A DNA stretch of 51,598 nucleotides, taken from Clostridia bacterium. Its GTDB lineage: Bacteria > Bacillota > Clostridia > Christensenellales > Aristaeellaceae. Below, one piece after another: positions 7,089 through 39,332 of the stretch (its first letter is position 1; the number at the start of each line of letters is the position of its first letter). The stretch is from positions 1 through 51,598 of the forward strand of contig JAFPWU010000005.1 in NCBI GenBank assembly GCA_017412715.1. The letters are read 5' to 3'. Position numbers and translations under genes: made by a program. The notes beneath the pieces were generated by a model. The model saw nothing but the letters and a program-made list of their open reading frames with translations. It searched no databases and was not told the DNA's origin.

Positions 7089-8324
7089 ATGGAACTGGAC
7101 ATCATCCGCGCGGCGGACCCGGAGCTGACGGAAGCGATTGAGCTTGAGCTGAACCGGCAGAGAACCCATATTGAGCTGATCGCCAGCGAGAACTTTGTTT
7201 CTCCTGCCGTGATGGCCGCCATGGGAACCTGCCTGACAAACAAGTATGCCGAGGGATATCCGGGAAAGCGGTATTACGGCGGCTGCCAGTATGTAGACAT
7301 CGCGGAGAATCTGGCCAGGGACCGGGCCTGCAGGCTTTTCGGCGCGGAGCACGCCAACGTGCAGCCCCACAGCGGCGCCCAGGCCAATATGGCGGTGTAT
7401 TTCGCCATGCTGAAACCGGGAGATACGGTCATGGGTCTGAGCCTGTCCAACGGAGGCCACCTGACCCACGGAAGCCCCGTGAACATGAGCGGCGCGTACT
7501 TCAACTTCGTGCCCTACGGGGTCAGCGGGGAGACGGAGACCATTGACTATGAAGAGGTTCGCCGGATTGCCCTGGAATGCAGGCCCAGGATGATCGTCTC
7601 CGGCGCCAGCGCTTATCCCCGGACGATCGATTTTGAGAAGCTGCGGGAGATCTGCGATGAGGTGGGCGCCCTGATGATGGTGGACATGGCCCACATTGCC
7701 GGACTCGTCGCGGCAGGGGAGCATCCCAGCCCCATTCCCTACGCGGATTTTGTGACCACCACCACCCACAAGACCCTGCGGGGCCCCCGGGGCGGCATGA
7801 TTCTTTGCCGGGAGGAATACGCCAAGGCAGTGGATAAGGCCATCTTCCCCGGCACCCAGGGCGGACCGCTGGAGCATGTCATCGCCGCGAAAGCGGTATG
7901 CTTCGGAGAGGCGCTGAAGCCTGAATTCAAAGCCTATCAGCATCAGATCATCCTCAACGCCAAGGCGATGGAAGAGCAGTTCAGGGCGGAAGGCGTCCGG
8001 ATGGTTTCCGGCGGGACGGACAACCATCTGCTGCTGCTGGACTTTACCGGAAGCGAAATGACCGGCAAGCAGATGGAGACCCTGCTGGAGGAAGCGAATA
8101 TCACCACCAATAAGAACACCGTGCCCAATGAGACCCGCAGCCCCTTCGTGACCAGCGGCCTGAGAGTGGGAACACCCGCGGCCACCACCAGGGGGCTGAA
8201 GGAAGCGGAAATGAAGCAGGTGGCCGCCTGGATTGCGCGGATCTTCCGGGAGGGAGAGGCTGCGGTGCCGGAAGTCAGAGCCAGGGTGGAAGCCATGATG
8301 AAGAATTATCCCCTTTACGCGTAA
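7089..8324 (+). CDS. glyA: Serine hydroxymethyltransferase
   Basis: This 411-residue PLP enzyme interconverts serine and glycine with tetrahydrofolate and supplies one-carbon units. Family hallmarks include [11 protein letters not shown] near residue 20, the GxRYYGGC segment, [12 protein letters not shown], and the PLP-lysine motif [14 protein letters not shown] with Lys about residue 228. Length is standard. The start at 7089 is set by GCAGGAGG eight bases upstream; an open extension back to 6948 runs through the SRP RNA and is not coding. It is transcribed from its own promoter behind the SRP RNA gene. Confidence 0.97.
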
Positions 8325-22141: not shown

Positions 22142-23578
22142 TCAGTTTGCCGCGGTGCCGTTCACATACAGCGTATAGCCGTTTGAGATGACATTTTCGA
22201 TATTTCCCTCGAAGCTGGTAATCCAGGTGTCCGCAGTCAGGGTCCAGGTGCTGGTTTCATCCAGCACCACGTTCACCGTGCCGACCTCGGCGGAAACCGT
22301 CTGCCCGCTGGCGTTCGCGATCTCTCCGCTTACGGTGCCCTCAAAGGTGGAACCGTTGGAGAGGGTCAGGGTCAGGGCGGAATTATCACCGACCAGGATC
22401 GTGCCGGCCAGATCCTGAGCATCCGCGGCCAGTTCGGCGATGTTGGAGGCGCCGCTCCAGCCGTCATCGCAAACGGAGAGGAGAATTTCGCTTCCCTCAT
22501 TGATCAGCTCAACGCCGGAGAGGGTGATGACCGCGTGGGTATTGGTTACATGGAACATATGCCCGCTTTTGCTGGTCAGGCTGCCTCCGGTCATGGTGAA
22601 GGAGGAGGTGCCGCTGTCCGCGTCCCCGCTCATGGACTGGTAGATCATAATGCTGTCCAGGAAGGTCGCGTTGCCGTTGCACCGGGTGTTATTCGCCGTT
22701 AAATCGCAGTTTTCCAGGGTAATGGAGTTCTTTCCCTCGATGCAGACGCCCTCGGACAGGCTGGACACCAGGGTGGCATTCTTTACGGTAATATCCGCTG
22801 TAGAGTAGATGGCCGGGGATCCCAGACCGCTGGAGGTGTAGGTGCCCCCGTCTACCACGACGATGCCGCCGCCCCGATCCGTCCGGATGGCGGCAGAGGA
22901 ACGCCCGGAGGTGGTCACCGTCAGGTTGCTGGCATAGGTGATGCCGCCGCCGGTGGTCATGATGCCGCCGGAACCGTCCCCGGTGGTGGTGATGACGGTG
23001 TCCGAAATGATCACCGTGGTGCCGTCCCCGGAGGCGCCGTTCTGTCCGCCGTTGCCGCCGTAGGAGAACACGCCGTTGGCGCCGGAGGCGGAGGTTTCCA
23101 CTGTGCCGCCGGAGATGGTGGCGGTGGAACCGCCCATGACCAGCAGGCCGGCGTTCAGGCCGTAAAAGTTGCAGTTATCGCCGCCGTCCGAATCGCCCGT
23201 CTTGGTAACGGTGGGATCAGAGATTGTGACCGCGTCGGCGGTATTGATGATCAGCGCACTCTCATCCGCGGACTCGGAGGCGTATATCTGATCAGTCTCT
23301 TCAGCAGCTTCCGTAATCTCCGCGGCTGCGGAATACTCAAAGGAAGAGGTGCTGCCTCCGGGAGGGGTGCCGCCGCCGAAACCGCCGCTCTGGCCGCCTT
23401 CTCCGCCGGGGCCGCCGGAGGGCGGATTTCCATCGGGGGGCGTACCGCCGCCGAAATCTCCGGAGGGCGGATCTCCGGGAGGAGTGCCGCCGGGGCCGCC
23501 GTCAGCAAAGGCCGAGACGGAGAAGAACATAGTGAGGGCCAGCAGAAGGGCCAGAAGAACCGAGAAGAGCTTTTTCAT
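22142..23578 (-). CDS. Secreted beta-helix surface protein
   Basis: The 478-residue protein has a signal peptide (1-25, cleavage after VSAFA), a Gly/Pro-rich linker (about 27-75) and a long run of short repeats with Gly-Gly turns and Thr/Ser/Val strands (for example TISGGTVETSASGANGVF). This is the pattern of a right-handed parallel beta-helix. The architecture resembles carbohydrate-binding beta-helix proteins of Clostridia (Cthe_2159 type), which bind plant polysaccharides; that link is inference. No sortase signal or membrane anchor is visible. The start at 23578 is preferred over 23599 because AAGGAAAGG lies 8 bases before it. It stands alone on the minus strand. Confidence 0.75.
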   Translation of the reverse strand: MKKLFSVLLALLLALTMFFSVSAFADGGPGGTPPGDPPSGDFGGGTPPDGNPPSGGPGGEGGQSGGFGGGTPPGGSTSSFEYSAAAEITEAAEETDQIYASESADESALIINTADAVTISDPTVTKTGDSDGGDNCNFYGLNAGLLVMGGSTATISGGTVETSASGANGVFSYGGNGGQNGASGDGTTVIISDTVITTTGDGSGGIMTTGGGITYASNLTVTTSGRSSAAIRTDRGGGIVVVDGGTYTSSGLGSPAIYSTADITVKNATLVSSLSEGVCIEGKNSITLENCDLTANNTRCNGNATFLDSIMIYQSMSGDADSGTSSFTMTGGSLTSKSGHMFHVTNTHAVITLSGVELINEGSEILLSVCDDGWSGASNIAELAADAQDLAGTILVGDNSALTLTLSNGSTFEGTVSGEIANASGQTVSAEVGTVNVVLDETSTWTLTADTWITSFEGNIENVISNGYTLYVNGTAAN

Positions 23579-23605
23579 GCATTTCACCTTTCCTTTCATT
23601 CAGTA

Positions 23606-29955: not shown

Positions 29956-31242
29956 ATGAGCTGTGTCAATCTGTGGGCGGAAAAACTGAATTCCCAGGAA
30001 GCTGCCGATCATCTGACCATGCTGTACGGACCGGGGGCAGAGGTGCTCGCCCGGCAGCGGGAACGGTATCTGGACCTGATTCGGAAACATGAGGAGGACT
30101 TCGGAGAAGGACACCGGGTGACGGTCTTTTCCGCTCCCGGACGGACGGAAATCGGCGGAAACCATACGGACCATAACAGGGGCCGCGTGCTGGCCGCCAG
30201 CGTAAATCTGGATATTCTGTGCGCCGCCTCTCCCCGGGAGGATGGGATTGTCCATTTCAACAGCGAGGGATTTAAGCCCCTGACGCTGGACCTGTCGGAC
30301 ACCGAAAGACGGCAGGAGGAGGAAGGAAGCACCCTGGGACTGATCCGCGGGGTGGCTGACGGCATGAAAAAGGCCGGATACCGGATCGGCGGATTTGATG
30401 CGGTGGTGACATCCACCGTGGGCAGAGGCAGCGGACTGAGCAGCTCCGCTGCGCTGGAAGTGATGCTGAGCGGAGTGTTCGACGGGCTGTTCAATGCCTT
30501 TTCCATGCCCTTCCCGGAGAGGGCGCAGATCTGCCGAAGGGCGGAAAACCTGTATTTCGGGAAGCCCTCGGGGCTGCTGGATCAGATGGCCAGCGCCGCG
30601 GGCGGCCTGGTAACGGTGGATTTCCGGGATGAACAGGATCCGAAGGTGGAGGCGCTCCAGTATGACTTCGCGGCAAAGGGGTATGCCCTGGTAGTCGTAG
30701 GTACCGGCGGAAACCATGAGGATCTGACGGATCACTACGCGGCCATCCCCCGGGAAATGCGGCAGGTAGCGGCCTGCTTCGGGCAGGAGACCCTGCGGGG
30801 CATCAGCCGGGAAGCGCTGATGGAGCGGATGGGAGAGCTTCGGAAATCCGTCAGTGACAGGGCCCTGCTGCGGGCCATGCATTTTGTGGACGAGGACGCA
30901 AGGGTGCCGGAACAGGTGAAGGCGCTGAAGGAGGATCGGATCCAGGATTTCCTGGGCCTGATTATTGAAAGCGGAAGATCCTCCAGCATGTATCTGCAGA
31001 ATATTTATGCCACGAACGACGACCAGAGCCTGAGCCTGGCCCTGTGCATGGCGGAAGCGATGCTGAAGGGAAAGGGCGCCTGGAGAATTCACGGGGGCGG
31101 ATTTGCGGGAACCACGCTGAATTTCGTGCCGCTGGAGGATGTGGACACTTTCGTGGCGGAAATGAACGGGACTTTCGGAGAGGGAGCCTGCCATGTGCTG
31201 AACATTCGGCCTGTGGGCGCGGATCGGATGTGCCTGGCATGA
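29956..31242 (+). CDS. galK: Galactokinase
   Basis: The 428-residue GHMP-family kinase phosphorylates galactose at C1 with ATP, the first committed Leloir step. Visible motifs: the galactokinase signature GRTEIGGNHTDHNRG near residue 62, the GHMP ATP loop GRGSGLSSSAALEV near 156, and GAWRIHGGGFAGTTLN near 377. Length is somewhat above the usual 390. GAGGAAAGAAGAGG precedes the ATG. The stop codon overlaps the tsaE start by four bases (ATGA). No galT or galE is in the window. Confidence 0.93.
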   Translation: MSCVNLWAEKLNSQEAADHLTMLYGPGAEVLARQRERYLDLIRKHEEDFGEGHRVTVFSAPGRTEIGGNHTDHNRGRVLAASVNLDILCAASPREDGIVHFNSEGFKPLTLDLSDTERRQEEEGSTLGLIRGVADGMKKAGYRIGGFDAVVTSTVGRGSGLSSSAALEVMLSGVFDGLFNAFSMPFPERAQICRRAENLYFGKPSGLLDQMASAAGGLVTVDFRDEQDPKVEALQYDFAAKGYALVVVGTGGNHEDLTDHYAAIPREMRQVAACFGQETLRGISREALMERMGELRKSVSDRALLRAMHFVDEDARVPEQVKALKEDRIQDFLGLIIESGRSSSMYLQNIYATNDDQSLSLALCMAEAMLKGKGAWRIHGGGFAGTTLNFVPLEDVDTFVAEMNGTFGEGACHVLNIRPVGADRMCLA

Positions 31243-31682
31243 GAACGGAGAGCGCGGAAGAAACCCGGGCGCTGGGGGTGCGGCTGGCAGCGGAGCTCCG
31301 GGCGGGGGATGTGATCCTGCTGGAGGGGCCGCTGGGAGCCGGGAAAAGCGAACTGGCCCGGGGAATTGCCCAGGGAATGGGGGTACGGGAGACCGTAACC
31401 AGCCCCACCTTTACGATCCTGAACGTCTATTCCGGGGAGAGACTTCCCCTGTACCATTTCGACTGGTATCGGCTGGAAAGCGCGGAGGAGCTGTACGAGA
31501 TGGGGATGGATGAATACCTGGGCGGAGACGGGGTGGCACTGGTGGAATGGCCCGGAAGATGCCCGGAGGCACTGCCGGCGGATTTCCTGATGATTGAGAT
31601 TTCCCCGGAAGGGGAGGAAACCCGGCGGATCCGTGCGGTACGGCACGGGAATTTTCGGAAGCTGGAGAACATAGAGGAATGA
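31239..31682 (+). CDS. tsaE: tRNA t6A biosynthesis ATPase TsaE
   Basis: The 147-residue P-loop protein has Walker A GPLGAGKSE near residue 30, SPTFTILNVY and HFDWYRL, all TsaE signatures. TsaE is the ATPase that resets the TsaBD complex making threonylcarbamoyl-adenosine at position 37 of ANN-decoding tRNAs. The start at 31239 gives an ATGA overlap with galK, and its own stop overlaps tsaB the same way. The frame remains open upstream inside galK without a family match. Confidence 0.93.
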   Translation: MRTESAEETRALGVRLAAELRAGDVILLEGPLGAGKSELARGIAQGMGVRETVTSPTFTILNVYSGERLPLYHFDWYRLESAEELYEMGMDEYLGGDGVALVEWPGRCPEALPADFLMIEISPEGEETRRIRAVRHGNFRKLENIEE

Positions 31683-32380
31683 GACTGTTGGCGATAGATA
31701 CCTCCGGCCCGGTATGCGGAACGGCGGTGATGGAGGAGGAAAAGGTTCTGGCGGAGATGACCTGCCAGAACCATTATACCCACAGTGCGAGCCTGATGCC
31801 CATGGCGGAACGCAGCCTGGAGATGGCGGGAATGCGCCTTGCGGACCTGGATGCCCTGGCGGTTGTGACGGGACCCGGAAGCTTTACGGGGGTGCGCATT
31901 GGCGTAGCCACTGCCAAGGGTCTGGCCCACGGCAGCGGCCTGCCCTGCATCCCGGTGGACGCACTGGAAGCATTGGCGGAGAGCACGGGAATGAGGGCGG
32001 AGCCCCTTCTGATCTGTCCGCTGCAGGACGCCCGGGCGGGACAGGTTTACGGAGCCTGCTTTTATCAGGGGGAGCGCCGGACGGAGAACCGAGCCGTCAA
32101 ACTGGAAGAATTCCTGAAGGCTGCGGGGGAAATGTGGGACGGAATCTGCCTGTTTACCGGGGACGGGGCTGCGGTCCATGAAGCGCGAATCCGCGAGATC
32201 ATGGGGGAAAAGGCCCGGTTTCCGGAGTCCCCCTTCAACTATCTGCGCCCCTCCGCGGCAGGGCGGATTGCCGCCCGAAGCGGCGAGAGCGTGCCCTACA
32301 CGGAACTGAAGGAAACCTATCTGCGGCCGCCAAATGCCGAAAAGAACAAAAAGCTGCTGGAGGCCATGAGGCATGGGTGA
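31679..32380 (+). CDS. tsaB: tRNA t6A biosynthesis protein TsaB
   Basis: The 233-residue protein is TsaB, an ASKHA-fold paralogue of TsaD that forms the TsaBD dimer in t6A synthesis. The start MRLLAIDTSGPVCGTAV and the segment VVTGPGSFTGVRIGVATAKGLA are diagnostic. It overlaps tsaE by four bases and rimI by eight, the common tsaE-tsaB-rimI order of Firmicutes. tsaD is not in the window. Confidence 0.95.
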   Translation: MRLLAIDTSGPVCGTAVMEEEKVLAEMTCQNHYTHSASLMPMAERSLEMAGMRLADLDALAVVTGPGSFTGVRIGVATAKGLAHGSGLPCIPVDALEALAESTGMRAEPLLICPLQDARAGQVYGACFYQGERRTENRAVKLEEFLKAAGEMWDGICLFTGDGAAVHEARIREIMGEKARFPESPFNYLRPSAAGRIAARSGESVPYTELKETYLRPPNAEKNKKLLEAMRHG

Positions 32381-32885
32381 GGAAGGACAGATTCGGATCC
32401 GCCGGATGCAGTACCGGGACGTGAAGCAGGTGGTAGCCATCGAGGCCGCCACCTTTCCGAAACCCTGGAGCGAGAAAAGCTTTCGCCGGGAGGTGGAGGA
32501 AAACGCGGTGGCACGGTATCTGGTGGCGGACAGGGAGGGTGAAATCCTGGGCTACGCCGGTACCTGGGTGGTGCTGGACGAATGCCATATTACCAACATT
32601 GCGGTGCGGGAAGACTGCCGCGGCCAGGGGCTGGGAAGACGGCTGGTGGAGGAGCTCATGCAGTATGCCAGCAACCTGGGGGCTGCCTGGGCGGATCTGG
32701 AGGTCAGGGTCAGCAATGAGAGGGCTCAGGGACTCTACAGGGGGGCAGGGTTTGTGACCCTCGGCAAGCGGAAACGGTATTACGAGGACAACGGGGAGGA
32801 CGCTTACCTGATGGTGTGCGAAAAGATGCCCCCTGCGGATCCGGAGTTCGAAGAGGAAAAAGTTGAGCGGGAGGAAAACACGTGA
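32373..32885 (+). CDS. rimI: Ribosomal protein S18-alanine N-acetyltransferase
   Basis: The 170-residue GNAT protein has the acetyl-CoA loop REDCRGQGLGRRL near residue 85 and the RimI pattern IEAATFPKPWSEKSF near residue 25. RimI acetylates the N-terminus of S18. A C-terminal acidic extension of about 20 residues goes beyond the usual 150. The end overlaps the PIG-L gene start as GTGA, so a secreted hydrolase is translationally coupled to this housekeeping cluster. Confidence 0.9.
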   Translation: MGEEGQIRIRRMQYRDVKQVVAIEAATFPKPWSEKSFRREVEENAVARYLVADREGEILGYAGTWVVLDECHITNIAVREDCRGQGLGRRLVEELMQYASNLGAAWADLEVRVSNERAQGLYRGAGFVTLGKRKRYYEDNGEDAYLMVCEKMPPADPEFEEEKVEREENT

Positions 32886-34135
32886 ACCATCAGAAAGCAA
32901 GAAGAAGGATTCCCTGGGAACTGCTTCTGCTGGCGGCGGTCCTGCTCATGATCGGCAGGGCAGGCGCGGAGGAAGCCCCTGACCTGACGAAGGAATGCAC
33001 CTTCAGGATGTGCTCCACAAAGTGGAACGAATCCCTGATGATCGACGGGAAATACACCAGCTACTGGGAGAGCAACGAGATCAGAAATCCCTGGATCACC
33101 ATTTCCAGCGAGACGCCCATGTACGGCCTTTACATCTGCTTCCGTCAGATGCCGGCCACCTTTGAAATCCAGGTGCCGGAGACGGACGAGGAGGGAAAGG
33201 TGACCTGGGTCAGGCTCCTGGACGGAGACTCCCGGTTCTACCATACCTACTATCCCCTGGAGGGGGAGCAGTCCATCCGCATCTGTTCCACCGTGGAGAA
33301 GAAGCAGAAGATGGGCGTAAACGAGATATACGTTTTCGGAAAAGGAAATGTTCCGGACTGGGTCCAGCGATGGGAGGAGACGGAGGAGAAGGCGGATATC
33401 CTGTTCTTCTCCGCGCATCCGGACGATGAAATGATCTTTCTGGGTGGCGCCATCCCCACCTACGCGGGGGAAAGGGGCAAGCGGGTCATTGTGGCCTACC
33501 TGTCCTACAGCAATACAACCCGGAGGAGCGAGGCCCTGAACGGGCTTTGGACCATGGGCGTGCGGCACTATCCGGTATTCGGATCCTTCCGGGACGCATA
33601 CAGCAAGAAAGTGACACAGGCTTACAGCAACGCAGGGAAGAAGAAGGTGCTTTCCTGGGTCACGGAGCTGTACCGGAAATATCAGCCGGAGGTGGTGGTG
33701 ACCCACGATCTGAACGGGGAATACGGCCACGGCCAGCACAAGATGATTGCTGACGCGGCAGTTCAGGGGTACGAGCTGGCGGCGGATCCGGAGAAATACC
33801 CGGAGTCGGCAGCGAAATACGGCACCTGGCAGGTCAGAAAGCTGTATGTTCACCTGTACGGGGAGAACGACCAGCTGACGAAGTTTGACTGGACGGTGCC
33901 GCTGGAGAGCTTCGGCGGGAAAACCGGGCTGGAAGTAGCCAGCGAAGCCTATGCGCTGCATAAGACCCAGGAACGGGCCGAGGTCAAGATTGACGGACAG
34001 TGGCACAGGCTGAGCGTGGAAGTGACGGGAGCCGCCTACGACAATACGGCATTCGGGCTGTATGCTTCCCGGGTGGGCCCGGATGTGAAACATGACGATT
34101 TCCTGGAGAATATTCAGGAGAAGGAAGCGGACTGA
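32882..34135 (+). CDS. Secreted PIG-L family deacetylase with N-terminal beta-sandwich
   Basis: The 417-residue protein has a signal peptide (1-30, LLLLAAVLLMIGRAGA), a discoidin-like beta domain (about 35-160) and a PIG-L/LmbE deacetylase domain. The zinc-site motifs are intact: AHPDDE at about residues 178-183 and HDLNGEYGHGQH at about 274-285. PIG-L enzymes remove acetyl groups from N-acetylglucosamine-type sugars. The start is GTG at 32882, overlapping the rimI stop. Export and the beta domain suggest action on surface or external glycans. The next gene is a paralogue along the first 380 residues. Confidence 0.88.
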   Translation: MNHQKARRRIPWELLLLAAVLLMIGRAGAEEAPDLTKECTFRMCSTKWNESLMIDGKYTSYWESNEIRNPWITISSETPMYGLYICFRQMPATFEIQVPETDEEGKVTWVRLLDGDSRFYHTYYPLEGEQSIRICSTVEKKQKMGVNEIYVFGKGNVPDWVQRWEETEEKADILFFSAHPDDEMIFLGGAIPTYAGERGKRVIVAYLSYSNTTRRSEALNGLWTMGVRHYPVFGSFRDAYSKKVTQAYSNAGKKKVLSWVTELYRKYQPEVVVTHDLNGEYGHGQHKMIADAAVQGYELAADPEKYPESAAKYGTWQVRKLYVHLYGENDQLTKFDWTVPLESFGGKTGLEVASEAYALHKTQERAEVKIDGQWHRLSVEVTGAAYDNTAFGLYASRVGPDVKHDDFLENIQEKEAD

Positions 34136-34186
34136 CGCTCCGCTTTTCAGAACTGAACAGTTACGAAAAAAGGAGAATCAAGTCCC

Positions 34187-36301
34187 TTGAAGAAGAAAAG
34201 CCTGCTGATTCTGACGCTCTGCCTGGTTCTTTTGGCCGCGGCGGCCTGCAGCGCCGCATCCGCGGAAACTCTGGACGCGCTGGAGCTGAAAACAACGGAG
34301 GTGACTCTGAGCCTTTCAGGAGTGAAGAATCCGAAAAACCTGACAGATCGGAAATTTACCACCTATTCAGAGAGCAAGAGCGTGAAAAATCCCTCCCTGA
34401 CGCTGGAATCCTCCACCTCCATCCACGGACTCTACCTGTGCTTTCAAAAGAAGCCGGAGAGCTATGAGATCCAGGTGAAGAGGGGCGGAGACTGGGAGAC
34501 CCTGAGGGAGGGCAGCGAGTATATCCATGCCTTCTATGAGCTGGACGGGGTTACGGACGTGCGGGTCTATGCCCTGGGGGATAAAAAGCAGACCATGGGC
34601 TTTAACGAGGTTTACATCTTCGGAGAGGGCCGCATTCCCGAATGGGTACAGAGGTGGGAGCCTACGCCGGAGAAGAGCGATCTGCTGTTCGTGGTGGCCC
34701 ACCCGGAGGAGGAGCTGCTGTACCTGGGCGGGGCGATTCCCTACTATGCGCGGGAGATGGGCAGAACGGTGGCTGTGGCCTGCATGAGCTATGCCAATAC
34801 CACCCGGCGGAGCGAGCTGCTGAACGGGCTGTGGAGCATGGGGTACAGGAACTATCCCATCATCGGAAGCTTCAAGACCGCCAAGGTTAAGGGGGGCATC
34901 TCCGCGGCCTACAAAACCATTGACAGCAGGAACGGGCAGCAGGTGCTGGCCGGATGGCTGAACGAGGTGCTGACCCGGACAAAGCCAGAGGTCATGGTGG
35001 GCCCGGACGAGCAGGGAGAAGGCGGCAACGCCCAGAGAATGATGCTTGCGGACGCCTGCAGGAAGGCCTTCGACGGGGCAGAATGGCAGGTTCAGAAGCT
35101 GTATCTGCATCTGTACGGCGGGGAAGGGGATCAGGTGATCTTCGATTGGAACCGGCCCCTGGAGAAGCTGGGCGGCCGGACGGGGATGGGCCTGGCCTAT
35201 TACGCGTATCTGTTCCATAAGACGCAGGATGACCAGGAAAAGAGCGTGTATCAGGAGGGCATCACCTACGCCAATAACACCTTCGGACTTGCGGAAAGCC
35301 TGGTGGGACCGGATCTGATCCGGGAAGACCTGCTGGAGAATATTCCGCTGGAGAACCTGGCGGAGAGCCGGGAGCAGGAGCCGGTGAGCAGATGGACCCT
35401 GGAGGAGGTGCCGGGCCTGCCGGCGCTGAATGAGAAGGGGTTTCTGGACGAAGGGGAATTCATCTGGAGCGACGATGCCCGGGGCCATTATGTGTTCATC
35501 AATGCAGGTGTGAAACTGATCATTACCAGGAAATTTGACGGGAGCATGCCGCTCACCTGGTTTGAGACGGAAATCTGGTGCGACGTGGAAGCCGGGGAGA
35601 AAATGGTGAACGTGGAATACACCCCGGAAAAGCCCGTAGGGAAAAAAAGCCGGGTGGACGCGTCAAAAACCGCTGTCAAAAACCGGCTGGTTTTCGCCTG
35701 CAACAGCGACTACTATACCTACCGGGTCGGGAGCAAGAACGGCCATCCCGTGGGGATCGAGATCCGGAACGGTGAAATCTACTACGATGACGCCTACGAC
35801 TATCTGGAAACAAAATTCTTCCCCAACCTGGACACGCTGGCCTTCTATGAGGACGGACATGTGGATGTGCATGCCAGCATGGAGATGACGGCCCAGGATT
35901 ACCTGGATCAGGACGCCTACATGGTCTTCAGCTTCGGACCCTATCTGATCCGGGACGGAAAGCTGAGCGACTGGGTTCAGGATCCCAACAAGAGCCGGGC
36001 CAAGAATCCCAGGCATGCTTTCGGGATGATTGAGCCGGGGCATTATGTGGATATTATGTGCGAGGGAAGACTTGGAAGCCGCAGCGAAGGCGTGACCATG
36101 CCCCAGCTGGCCTTCCTGTGCCAGGCGGCTGGATGCACGCAGGCCTGCGACCTGGACGGGGGCCAGACGGCGGTGGTAGTGTTCATGGGGCAGCAGCTGA
36201 ACAAGATCGGGAAGTATGACGGGAAGACAGCTGCCCGGGAAACCTGCGAGGTGCTGGGCATCGGATTCAGCGACCAGGTAGGCAGCTGGAACATTCAGTA
36301 A
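34187..36301 (+). CDS. Degenerate PIG-L domain fused to phosphodiester glycosidase (NAGPA) domain
   Basis: The 704-residue protein starts at TTG (34187, AGGAG 11 bases upstream) with a signal peptide (to about residue 26). It then repeats the layout of its neighbour: discoidin-like domain and PIG-L domain. But AHPDDE has become AHPEEE (about 171-176), and the HDxxGEYGHxxH motif has become GPDEQGEGGNAQR (about 272-284). Two zinc-ligand histidines and the catalytic aspartate context are gone, so deacetylase activity is unlikely. From about 440 to 704 it has a NAGPA-type domain: HAFGMIEPGHYVDIMCEGR, GVTMPQLAFLCQAAGC, ACDLDGGQTAVVVFMGQ. Known NAGPA enzymes remove covering GlcNAc from phosphodiesters. 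Confidence 0.85.
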   Translation: MKKKSLLILTLCLVLLAAAACSAASAETLDALELKTTEVTLSLSGVKNPKNLTDRKFTTYSESKSVKNPSLTLESSTSIHGLYLCFQKKPESYEIQVKRGGDWETLREGSEYIHAFYELDGVTDVRVYALGDKKQTMGFNEVYIFGEGRIPEWVQRWEPTPEKSDLLFVVAHPEEELLYLGGAIPYYAREMGRTVAVACMSYANTTRRSELLNGLWSMGYRNYPIIGSFKTAKVKGGISAAYKTIDSRNGQQVLAGWLNEVLTRTKPEVMVGPDEQGEGGNAQRMMLADACRKAFDGAEWQVQKLYLHLYGGEGDQVIFDWNRPLEKLGGRTGMGLAYYAYLFHKTQDDQEKSVYQEGITYANNTFGLAESLVGPDLIREDLLENIPLENLAESREQEPVSRWTLEEVPGLPALNEKGFLDEGEFIWSDDARGHYVFINAGVKLIITRKFDGSMPLTWFETEIWCDVEAGEKMVNVEYTPEKPVGKKSRVDASKTAVKNRLVFACNSDYYTYRVGSKNGHPVGIEIRNGEIYYDDAYDYLETKFFPNLDTLAFYEDGHVDVHASMEMTAQDYLDQDAYMVFSFGPYLIRDGKLSDWVQDPNKSRAKNPRHAFGMIEPGHYVDIMCEGRLGSRSEGVTMPQLAFLCQAAGCTQACDLDGGQTAVVVFMGQQLNKIGKYDGKTAARETCEVLGIGFSDQVGSWNIQ

Positions 36302-36362: not shown

Positions 36363-39332
36363 ATGGATGAACAAAGGAGACCCAGGGCGAGGCAAAAGAA
36401 GATCGTATCGGAAGGAAAGGGCGTAGAGAAGAAGGGCCAGGGGCTGGGCACCGGCCCGGTAGGCAATACGGGAGGATACGAGGAACGAAAGCAGCAGACG
36501 AATTCGGCCCGCCCTGCGCAGCAGTCCCCCTTCACGCAGCAGCGGCCTCAGCAGAATCCTTTTTCCCAGCAGACGGGAAGCGGCCGTCCTGCCCAGCAGT
36601 CCCCTTTCACCCAGCAGCGGCCCCAGCAGACGGGAAGCGGCCGTCCTGCCCAGCAGACCCCCTTTACCCAGCAGCGCCCCCAGCAGACGGGAAGCGGCCG
36701 CCCCACGCAGCAGTCTCCCTTCACGCAGCAGCGGCCAAGGCAGACAGGAAGAGGACAGGCTGCGAACTCCGCATCCGGGGAAAACGGATCTCAGCGGTCC
36801 ACCGCTCCCGTGAGGGGAAGCGGCGGGGGAAGCAAGCTGCTCCTGATCGTGATTGCCCTTGTGGTACTCCTGGGGGGAGGACGGTTTTCGGGCCTGCTGG
36901 GAGGAGATGATTCCTCCCAGACCGTGCTGCCGTCTTCCACCACGCAGACCGGCACTTCAACCGCGGGCACCTCAACCGGGTCCTCCGGGAGCATATCCTC
37001 CACGCAGGGAGACCTCACTTCCTCCGGGGGGACGAACCTCTCGGGTGCTCTTTCCGGCAAGGACAGCCTGGAGGATCTGCTGAGCGCGTTCCTGGGCTCC
37101 AGCGGATCCTCAGTCTATGATTATACGGGAAACCTTTTCGGCGGCTACACGGGCGGTTCATCGTCTTCCGGCACGACCGGTTCCGTTTCCTATCCCTCCG
37201 TGGGAAGCTCCTCCGGGAGCAATACCTCCTCCGTGGATACCACCGTATCCTCCAAGGCCAGGGATAAATATACGGTGATCCGGGGAAACAACAAAGATGA
37301 AGTCACCATCCTGGTCTATATGTGCGGCACCGACCTGGAGAGCCAGAACGGCATGGGCACCTCCGACCTGAAGGAGATGACCCAGGCCACGCTAGGCAGC
37401 AGGGTCAACCTGATCGTCTACACGGGCGGGTGCAGAAGATGGCGCAATAATGTGGTGTCCAGCTCCGTGAACCAGATCTATCAGATTCAGGACGGAAAAC
37501 TCTACTGCCTGGAAAAGGATATGGGCGCGGTGTCCATGACGAAACCTGAAACGCTGGCCAGCTTTATCCAATACGGAGCGGAGCGGTTCCCGGCCAACCG
37601 GATGTGCCTCATCTTCTGGGACCATGGCGGCGGTTCCGTCACAGGTTACGGATATGACGAGAAGTTCTCTTCCAGCGGTTCCATGTCCCTTGCGGGAATC
37701 AATAAAGCCCTGAAGCAGGCGGGTCAGAAGTTTGATTTCATCGGGTTTGATGCCTGCCTGATGGCTACGGTGGAAAACGGGCTCATGCTGGGCGAGTATG
37801 CGGATTATATGATCGCCAGCGAGGAGACCGAGCCCGGGGTAGGCTGGTATTATACCAACTGGCTGACCTCCCTTGGAAAGAACTCCAGCATGCCCACGGT
37901 GGAAATCGGCAAGAAGATCGTGGATGATTTCGTGGAGGTCTGCAACCGGCAGTGCCGCGGGCAGGGGACCACCCTGTCCGTCGTGGATCTGGCGGAGCTG
38001 CAGGCCACCGTGCCTGCTGAGCTGACTTCCTTCAGCAAAGCGGCCACGGAACTGATTCAGAATCAGGAATATAAAACCCTGGCTACGGCGCGCAGCAGGA
38101 CCCGGGAGTTTGCCCAGTCCACCAGAATTGATCAGATCGACCTGGTACATTTTGCCAATAATCTGGGGAATGCTCAGGGCAAAAGCCTTGCCAGGGCGCT
38201 GAAGGGGGCGGTGAAATATAACCGGACCGGAGGATCCATTTCCAATGCCTACGGCCTGAGCATTTATTTCCCCTATAAGGCGGCGGGCAAGCTGAGGCAG
38301 ATGGTTTCCACCTACCAGGCCATCGGCATGGACGAGGAATATACCAGGTGCATTCAGGAATTTGCCAGCCTGGAGCTGAGCGGGCAGGCCGTGGCGGGCA
38401 CGAGCCTGAACAACTACAGCAGCCAGAGCGTGGGCATGTCCAGCCTGCTGGAAAGCCTGATGGGAGGGTATGGATCCGGCAGCGGCGGATACGGAACTGG
38501 AAGTTACGGCTCCGGGTCCGGCAGCTATGGGTCTTCTCCCTACGGCAGCCTTTATTCATCCTCCGGGGATATGTCCGATCTTCTGGGAAGCCTGTTCGGC
38601 GGCACCTACGGGGGCAGCACCTCCGGCGGCAGTACCTCCGGCGGATACGGGGATCTGCTGAGCATCTTCTCCGGGCGCAGCATTACCGCGGATCAGGTGG
38701 GAGAGTACCTGATGGCCCACCATCTGGATCCTGCCGCACTGGTATGGTCCGGGGACAGGCTCACCCTTTCCGGGGACCAGTGGAGTGAAGTGGAGAGCCT
38801 GTGCGTGAACGTCTTTGTGGACGACGAAGAAGGGTATATCGATCTGGGAATGGACAACACCTTCACCCTGGAGGGAGACTCCCTGGTTGCCGACTTTGAC
38901 GGCACCTGGATTTCCATTGACGGGCAGCCCATCGCGTATTACTATCTGGGTACCGAGGAAGAGGGGGAAGCCTGGGCCATCACCGGATACACGCCGGCCC
39001 TGTTGAATGGAGAGCGGGTAAAGCTGATGCTCCTGTTCGACAATGAACATCCCTATGGCGTGATCAGCGGCGCCCAGACGGTCTATCACGGGGGAGAGAC
39101 GGAAGCTCAGGCGAAGAATCTGATTCAGATCGGCGCCGGGGATCAGCTTCAGTTCCTTTGCGATTATTATGACTATCAGGGGAATTATCAGGACAGCTTC
39201 CTGCTGGGGAATCCCATTGTGCTGGGTCAGGAAACGGAGATTGCCAATACGCCCATCGGAGACAGGAAGGTCAAGGTGACCTACTGCTTTACGGACTATT
39301 ATCAGCAAAGATACTGGACCCCGGCGCCCTGA
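36363..39332 (+). CDS. Membrane-anchored clostripain-related (C11) cysteine protease
   Basis: The 989-residue protein has four parts. A basic, Gln/Pro-rich N-terminal tail (1-155) holds imperfect tandem repeats. One membrane helix lies at about 158-173, and a Ser/Thr/Gly-rich linker runs to about 300. The C11 peptidase domain follows, with VTILVYMCGTDLES, catalytic His in WDHGGG (about 420) and catalytic Cys in GFDACLMA (about 464). A Gly/Tyr/Ser-rich stretch (about 700-770) and a C-terminal beta domain complete it. C11 enzymes cut after basic residues and usually self-activate. Topology puts the protease outside the cell. GGGAGG precedes the ATG. It follows the two PIG-L genes in the same direction. 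Confidence 0.88.
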   Translation: MDEQRRPRARQKKIVSEGKGVEKKGQGLGTGPVGNTGGYEERKQQTNSARPAQQSPFTQQRPQQNPFSQQTGSGRPAQQSPFTQQRPQQTGSGRPAQQTPFTQQRPQQTGSGRPTQQSPFTQQRPRQTGRGQAANSASGENGSQRSTAPVRGSGGGSKLLLIVIALVVLLGGGRFSGLLGGDDSSQTVLPSSTTQTGTSTAGTSTGSSGSISSTQGDLTSSGGTNLSGALSGKDSLEDLLSAFLGSSGSSVYDYTGNLFGGYTGGSSSSGTTGSVSYPSVGSSSGSNTSSVDTTVSSKARDKYTVIRGNNKDEVTILVYMCGTDLESQNGMGTSDLKEMTQATLGSRVNLIVYTGGCRRWRNNVVSSSVNQIYQIQDGKLYCLEKDMGAVSMTKPETLASFIQYGAERFPANRMCLIFWDHGGGSVTGYGYDEKFSSSGSMSLAGINKALKQAGQKFDFIGFDACLMATVENGLMLGEYADYMIASEETEPGVGWYYTNWLTSLGKNSSMPTVEIGKKIVDDFVEVCNRQCRGQGTTLSVVDLAELQATVPAELTSFSKAATELIQNQEYKTLATARSRTREFAQSTRIDQIDLVHFANNLGNAQGKSLARALKGAVKYNRTGGSISNAYGLSIYFPYKAAGKLRQMVSTYQAIGMDEEYTRCIQEFASLELSGQAVAGTSLNNYSSQSVGMSSLLESLMGGYGSGSGGYGTGSYGSGSGSYGSSPYGSLYSSSGDMSDLLGSLFGGTYGGSTSGGSTSGGYGDLLSIFSGRSITADQVGEYLMAHHLDPAALVWSGDRLTLSGDQWSEVESLCVNVFVDDEEGYIDLGMDNTFTLEGDSLVADFDGTWISIDGQPIAYYYLGTEEEGEAWAITGYTPALLNGERVKLMLLFDNEHPYGVISGAQTVYHGGETEAQAKNLIQIGAGDQLQFLCDYYDYQGNYQDSFLLGNPIVLGQETEIANTPIGDRKVKVTYCFTDYYQQRYWTPAP
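36501..36745 (+). repeat. Coding tandem repeats (about 57 nt unit)
   Basis: About four imperfect copies of a unit encoding TGSGRPAQQSPFTQQRPQQ, differing mainly by synonymous or A/T changes, inside the C11 protease gene. Confidence 0.85.

What the first reader, a model, noticed from the sequence alone, without database searches (positions are those of the whole stretch)
32882..36301. Paired secreted PIG-L proteins: one intact, one dead deacetylase fused to a phosphodiester-glycosidase domain
The two neighbouring proteins share signal peptide, discoidin-like domain and PIG-L domain. The first keeps AHPDDE and HDxxGEYGHxxH; the second has AHPEEE and GPDEQGEGGNAQR, losing zinc ligands, and adds a NAGPA-type domain. 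A pseudo-deacetylase acting as binding module for an uncovering glycosidase, next to an active deacetylase, suggests an external system that edits phosphodiester-linked amino-sugar polymers such as teichoic-acid-like or exopolysaccharide chains. The zinc loss is seen in the sequence; the joint function is inferred.
Basis: partly seen in the sequence, partly recalled or inferred. Interest (0 to 1): 0.72.

Follow-up and report, generated by a model that had tools for sequence, protein, structure and literature searches.

The report
Dead deacetylase domain carried by glycosidase
Two neighbouring secreted-looking proteins of a gut Clostridia bacterium pair an intact-looking sugar deacetylase with a glycosidase that carries a dead copy of the same deacetylase, and the same arrangement arose again in another bacterial family, which suggests that the dead domain still has a job.

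The parts
32882..34135 (+). P1: secreted-looking CBM32-like + PIG-L deacetylase, 417 aa, GTG start overlapping the end of rimI by 4 nt
   Evidence: AlphaFold model pLDDT 93.7
32882..32968 (+). P1 signal peptide (residues 1-29), read by eye
   Evidence: sequence
32969..33346 (+). P1 CBM32/discoidin-like domain (residues 30-155)
33389..34120 (+). P1 PIG-L domain (residues 170-413)
33413..33430 (+). P1 AHPDDE: His179, Asp181, Asp182 = MshB His13, Asp15, Asp16
33704..33739 (+). P1 HDLNGEYGHGQH: Tyr281, His283, His286 = MshB Tyr142, His144, His147
34187..36301 (+). P2: secreted-looking CBM32-like + dead PIG-L + NAGPA fusion, 704 aa, TTG start, 51 nt after P1
   Evidence: AlphaFold model pLDDT 89.5, pTM 0.85
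34187..34264 (+). P2 signal peptide (residues 1-26), read by eye
   Evidence: sequence
34268..34630 (+). P2 CBM32/discoidin-like domain (residues 28-148)
34673..35353 (+). P2 pseudo-PIG-L domain (residues 163-389)
34697..34714 (+). P2 AHPEEE: general base and zinc Asp both changed to Glu
35000..35038 (+). P2 GPDEQGEGGNAQR: Tyr142, His144, His147 equivalents changed to Gly, Asn, Arg
35498..36271 (+). P2 NAGPA phosphodiester-glycosidase domain (residues 438-695)
29956..32885 (+). upstream neighbours: galactokinase-like, tsaE, tsaB, rimI
   Evidence: Pfam; all four found in 34 of 40 fetched genus loci, the last three in 35 of 40

Best explanation
The locus encodes an extracellular two-step glycan-processing unit. 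P1 is a zinc PIG-L deacetylase. P2 is a NAGPA-type phosphodiester glycosidase carried on a CBM32-like domain and a pseudo-PIG-L domain. The pseudo-domain arose from an active deacetylase, lost zinc chemistry once in this genus, and is kept because it still recognises the same amino-sugar glycan (or its deacetylated product) and holds the glycosidase on it, while P1 supplies deacetylation in trans. Shown: domain identity, residue loss, single clade of dead copies in the genus, conservation, purifying selection, linkage, a second independent case. Inferred: secretion (sequence only), enzymatic activities, glycan binding by the dead domain, substrate.
Against: No binding or enzyme data exist. Conservation would also fit a purely structural or assembly role. 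The Asp95 equivalent, a proposed substrate contact, is lost in 16 of 16, so the old pocket is altered. In 5 of 9 pairs the dead domain has the higher dN/dS, and dS is near saturation in most pairs. NAGPA catalytic residues could not be checked against a paper: Das 2013 is not held. 32 of 57 dead fusions have no standalone PIG-L in the stretch fetched. 7 genus genomes do with a NAGPA that has no PIG-L domain attached.
Confidence: 0.5

Rival explanations
1. The pseudo-PIG-L is a partner subunit: it assembles with the intact P1 (PIG-L family proteins can oligomerise, e.g. BshB hexamers) and activates or anchors it, joining deacetylase and glycosidase into one complex.
For: Genes adjacent, same strand, gap -4 to 108 nt, median 16, in 15 of 15 genus pairs (starts chosen by script); neighbours recur in 10 f10 loci; BshB hexamer (passage of PMC4101496).
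Against: Partner and dead gene have different histories: the standalone copies of G004 and G024 group with those of separate-gene genomes, and dead-fusion genomes are scattered on the housekeeping tree, so partners look exchangeable. G021 has no adjacent partner. 32 of 57 dead fusions have no standalone PIG-L in the fetched stretch.
Confidence: 0.22
2. The pseudo-PIG-L is only a structural spacer or folding support between the CBM32-like domain and NAGPA, with no ligand.
For: The fold is kept in P2 while catalytic residues are replaced in many different ways in f10; 7 genus genomes have NAGPA genes without a PIG-L domain.
Against: Arg68 equivalent invariant in the 16 dead copies and 52 of 72 conserved columns kept; dN/dS similar to the intact enzyme.
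Confidence: 0.18
3. The domain has not died but changed chemistry, working without the canonical zinc site.
For: The PIG-L fold also serves a hydratase, GalB, which is in the match lists; the G, N and R of the second motif are themselves fixed in 16 of 16.
Against: Base, zinc Asp, Tyr142, His144, His147 and Asp95 equivalents are all changed in the window copy; the first motif drifts among dead copies (AHPEEE, AQPDDE, GCPDEE, ARPSDD); f10 dead copies show many unrelated replacements.
Confidence: 0.06
4. Decay in progress: P2's PIG-L is a relic kept only because NAGPA is useful.
For: Catalytic residues gone; NAGPA changes more slowly than the dead domain (dN lower in 9 of 9 pairs, dN/dS lower in 7 of 9).
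Against: Full-length and stop-free in 16 of 16 copies down to about 51% identity, with dN/dS far below 1.
Confidence: 0.04

Closest known systems
PIG-L / LmbE-like zinc deacetylases (MshB, BshB, diacetylchitobiose deacetylase)
   Different: P1 looks secreted and carries a CBM32-like domain; P2 lacks the zinc Asp, zinc His147, base and oxyanion residues
NAGPA / DUF2233 phosphodiester glycosidases (UCE; BACOVA_00430, 3ohg)
   Different: Fused to CBM32-like and pseudo-PIG-L domains; EGR and GGQT where 3ohg and a paralogue of this genome have DGR and GGxS
Bacterial cell-surface proteins with NAGPA fused to other catalytic domains
   Same: NAGPA as a module in multi-domain surface proteins (passages of PMC12419801, and PMC11188070)
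   Different: The passages seen name prok-TelC, NlpC/p60, ZU5 and calcineurin-like partners, not PIG-L; no paper listed is, by title and abstract start, about a PIG-L-NAGPA fusion
Pseudoenzymes born by duplication beside an active paralogue (recalled as a general class)
   Same: Dead copy kept beside an intact copy
   Different: Here the dead copy is a module of another enzyme and arose at least twice

Membership tests
PIG-L / LmbE-like deacetylase (P1) | Zinc ligands His13, Asp16, His147 and base Asp15 (MshB numbering) | tested here: met
   residue roles from PMC4101496 passages
PIG-L / LmbE-like deacetylase (P1) | Rossmann-like PIG-L fold | tested here: met
PIG-L / LmbE-like deacetylase (P1) | N-deacetylase activity | not testable with these tools
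   no assay
PIG-L / LmbE-like deacetylase (P2) | PIG-L fold | tested here: met
PIG-L / LmbE-like deacetylase (P2) | Zinc ligands and general base | tested here: not met
   Only the His13 equivalent remains in the window copy; D, D, H became E, E, R. By residue criteria P2 is not an active member
PIG-L / LmbE-like deacetylase (P2) | Alternative zinc site | tested here: inconclusive
   No set of His, Asp, Glu or Cys residues newly fixed in the 16 copies resembles a site; no coordinates to inspect
NAGPA / DUF2233 | Profile match over cut-off | tested here: met
   71.6 bits against 25
NAGPA / DUF2233 | Fold of UCE and BACOVA_00430 | tested here: met
NAGPA / DUF2233 | Catalytic residues of UCE | tested here: inconclusive
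   D508, R513, R609, E626-G-R, D657-G-G invariant in the 24 fusions, but no source for catalytic roles was readable
NAGPA / DUF2233 | Cleavage of sugar-1-phosphodiesters | not testable with these tools
   no assay
CBM32 / F5_8 type C | Pfam profile match over cut-off | tested here: not met
   P1 14.3 bits against 28.2; no match listed for P2
CBM32 / F5_8 type C | Beta-sandwich fold of CBM32 | tested here: met

The most novel reading that the evidence does not exclude
A writer-reader-eraser system for an extracellular amino-sugar phosphodiester polymer: the intact PIG-L writes free amines, the pseudo-PIG-L is a reader that docks on that mark, perhaps with the new Arg where zinc sat, and NAGPA is the eraser that cuts sugar-1-phosphate bonds there. 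Pseudo-deacetylase readers would be a recurrent device, evolved at least twice by killing the deacetylase of a fused enzyme once a standalone copy could do the chemistry.
Probability: 0.22. Interest if true: 0.82.

Novelty: new variant of a known kind. Interest (0 to 1): 0.62.

Why it matters
PIG-L and NAGPA are each known, and NAGPA's substrate in bacteria is, as far as the passages read go, not pinned down. Recurrent fusion and pairing of the two is a direct clue: the glycan should carry an N-acetyl-amino sugar and a sugar-1-phosphodiester. If the dead domain binds that glycan, it is a ready-made probe for it, and a case in which the same enzyme-to-binder conversion happened more than once inside one protein architecture.

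Tried and rejected
Decay or assembly error: rejected, because the dead domain is full-length in 16 genomes and under purifying selection. One shared origin of all dead fusions: rejected (AU p 6.6e-8, 44 of 151 rows chosen by me after seeing the larger tree; dead rows have long branches, whose pull the test shares). Link to Stealth GlcNAc-1-phosphotransferases: a hit in only 7 of 45 genus genomes, so it does not track the locus. Paper searches: for a PIG-L pseudoenzyme one search found 0 papers; for PIG-L or LmbE with NAGPA, phosphodiester glycosidase or DUF2233 one search found 8 and listed 7, none about this by title and abstract start. NCBIfam gave P0002 only a weak match to the MshB model (20.1 bits, cut-off 224).

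Results against or outside the reading: one standalone PIG-L in f10 (L241, G347) has the base Asp changed to Glu, and one (L221, G297) has Asn for the His144 equivalent, so standalone copies are not all perfect there. In G177 the PIG-L beside NAGPA shows the first motif but not the second by pattern search; not examined. G012 has NAGPA but no PIG-L at the locus and no P0001 match. G011 has a related PIG-L without NAGPA or the usual neighbours in the stretch fetched. The loci of G013, G028, G030 and G042 were not fetched. f10 loci were found with a dead query, which may favour dead ones, although the one intact fusion (G173) ranked 13th. Of 45 f10 fused frames 3 were dropped before the count because the end of the stretch I fetched cut their PIG-L region to 242, 198 and 134 aa. 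Flank lengths differ between loci, so absence of a neighbour is weaker evidence than presence; the 25 of 57 against 0 of 35 contrast was not tested with the tree. The match list was only partly read: 60 loci fetched, not all. One of the 42 further relatives (L111) is the same locus as one of the 60 paralogues. PIG-L and NAGPA trees disagree on where the dead fusion joins, so the exact duplication history is open. Foldseek against PDB was not run; only the second-look aligner was.
Full report

The catalytic site. A profile of P1 relatives aligned to MshB puts P1 His179, Asp181, Asp182, Arg214, Asp238, Tyr281, His283 and His286 on MshB His13, Asp15, Asp16, Arg68, Asp95, Tyr142, His144 and His147 (correspondence counted by me from that alignment). 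These are named as ligands, base and substrate contacts in passages of a review (PMC4101496). P2 has His172, Glu174, Glu175, Arg207, Thr231, Gly279, Asn281 and Arg284 at the same places. It therefore keeps the first His and the substrate Arg and loses the base, the zinc Asp, the zinc His147, the oxyanion Tyr, His144 and Asp95. No newly fixed residues in the 16 dead copies look like another zinc site, but geometry could not be inspected.

Conservation in the genus. P0002 matches 68 of 100 genomes searched (own included), among them all 45 of the genus (many of these matches are to paralogues or to NAGPA alone). Reading 40 fetched loci from 40 genomes and the window: 16 of 45 genomes have the dead fusion (G000, 4, 7, 14, 18, 19, 21, 22, 24, 26, 27, 29, 32, 36, 39, 43). 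15 of these have a standalone PIG-L just upstream, gap -4 to 108 nt with starts chosen by script, and G021 has a residue-complete, 53%-identical PIG-L about 52 kb away on the same contig. 16 genomes have a single fusion with all residues present. 7 have separate PIG-L and NAGPA genes. The other 6 are exceptions: G012 NAGPA only, G011 a PIG-L only, and G013, G028, G030 and G042 not fetched. tsaE, tsaB and rimI lie in 35 of the 40 fetched loci, galK too in 34. All 16 dead copies read G, N, R where the 39 other genus copies and 42 further relatives read Y, H, H. In the first motif they drift (AHPEEE, AHPNEE, AQPDDE, GCPDEE, GQPEEE, ARPSDD), which suggests that the second-motif change came first (inference).

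Controls. With motif columns removed, the dead copies are one clade (100/100, 55 rows; 99 SH-aLRT, 97 rows), and so are their NAGPA domains (100/100, nothing removed). The ligand and base residues are kept in 60 of 60 other genus paralogues fetched and 42 of 42 further relatives (one locus is in both sets; 18 of the 42 are PIG-L-NAGPA fusions). Fusion as such does not kill the deacetylase. dN/dS in 9 pairs of genomes is 0.06-0.22 (dead PIG-L), 0.07-0.17 (intact PIG-L) and 0.06-0.13 (NAGPA); the dead domain is higher than the intact one in 5 of 9 pairs, and dS is near saturation in most. Of 72 PIG-L columns conserved (at least 93%) in 81 intact copies, 52 are kept in the dead clade.

How the locus moves. 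On a tree of four neighbouring housekeeping proteins (36 genomes, 12 of them with the dead fusion), dead-fusion genomes fall in several places, with G004 inside a starred separate-gene group, while the dead gene itself is one clade. G004's partner stays with G015 and G044 as its housekeeping genes do; G024's partner groups with G009 and G025. Dead fusion, intact fusion and separate NAGPA thus look like alternative occupants of one slot beside one intact PIG-L. Whether this came by exchange or by repeated loss is open.

A second, independent case. Following PIG-L-NAGPA neighbours in the order, G286 of another family (f10) showed a fusion with an unrecognisable zinc site beside an intact PIG-L. 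That protein matches 98 of 103 genomes of its family, counting matches to any part of it. In 43 loci read there are 45 fused frames; after dropping 3 that my fetched stretches cut short, 41 are dead (in 31 genomes) and 1 is intact (G173) by motif. The 12 standalone PIG-L copies in those loci keep H, D, D and the last H (one, G297, has Asn for the His144 equivalent), and 10 of the dead fusions lie beside such a copy. One search showed one further standalone copy (G347) with the base changed to Glu. Over 92 fusions, 25 of 57 dead and 0 of 35 intact ones lie beside a standalone PIG-L in the stretch fetched. With two origins this is a pattern, not a tested correlation, and flanks differ in length. 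A careful tree of 44 chosen rows keeps the two dead groups apart (100/99 and 97/98) and the AU test rejects one clade (p 6.6e-8). The f10 example read in full (G286) shows hydrophobic stretches between the domains and at the end of its neighbour, so both may be membrane-anchored (by eye).

Wider linkage. In the class-level search (207 of 391 genomes with a match to any part) no single-span fusion outside the order is in the listing, which was capped, but 6 genomes show PIG-L and NAGPA matches 752-1192 nt apart. In the order, G264 and G173 are fused, G073, G101, G104 and G177 have adjacent genes, and G297 has convergent neighbours.

Meaning. The constant in these arrangements is a deacetylase and a phosphodiester glycosidase acting outside the cell. 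The genome has two LytR-CpsA-Psr hits, so a wall-linked glycopolymer is plausible. Stealth phosphotransferases do not track the locus. I take the dead domain to be a retained binding or positioning module (0.5), with a partner-subunit role the main rival (0.22). Two searches of the paper library listed no paper about a PIG-L-NAGPA fusion or a PIG-L pseudoenzyme; that library omits most subscription journals.

Taxonomy. Named relatives are unnamed or uncultured Clostridia or Clostridiales genomes, many from ruminant and other animal guts by title. I suspect Aristaeella-like bacteria (recalled, not shown).

Noticed in passing
L220:3199-5826 (-) with L220:1555-3066 (+); L257, L259, L263, L266, L270, L272, L289, L291, L292: Second, independent set of dead PIG-L-NAGPA fusions in another family of the order, with very diverse replacements of the zinc motifs, ten beside an intact PIG-L.
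   Followed up: yes
whole genome G000 (L063-L072): Ten NAGPA-domain matches over cut-off in a genome only 55% complete: this lineage seems rich in phosphodiester glycosidases.
   Followed up: no
L241:3-1829 (-) and L221:1766-3238 (+): Standalone PIG-L copies with partial changes (base Asp to Glu; His144 equivalent to Asn), the second convergent with a separate NAGPA gene; possible early stages of loss.
   Followed up: no
window 36565-36751: Tandem repeat of 57 nt, 3.3 copies, in the Gln/Pro-rich N-terminal part of the clostripain-family protein downstream of P2.
   Followed up: no
L091:5902-7518 and 7522-8103: A PIG-L-NAGPA fusion gene interrupted by an in-frame stop inside the NAGPA part in one genome; sequencing error or pseudogene.
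   Followed up: no
G000:C36:10572-10880: A Stealth-type phosphotransferase match in this genome; 7 of 45 genus genomes have one.
   Followed up: partly
alignment A1, columns 440-595: The 8 intact genus fusions aligned have long acidic linkers between PIG-L and NAGPA, the 16 dead ones short linkers: possibly separate fusion events.
   Followed up: partly
window 22142-23599 (-): Secreted-looking protein with a Gly/Pro-rich N-terminus, function not examined.
   Followed up: no
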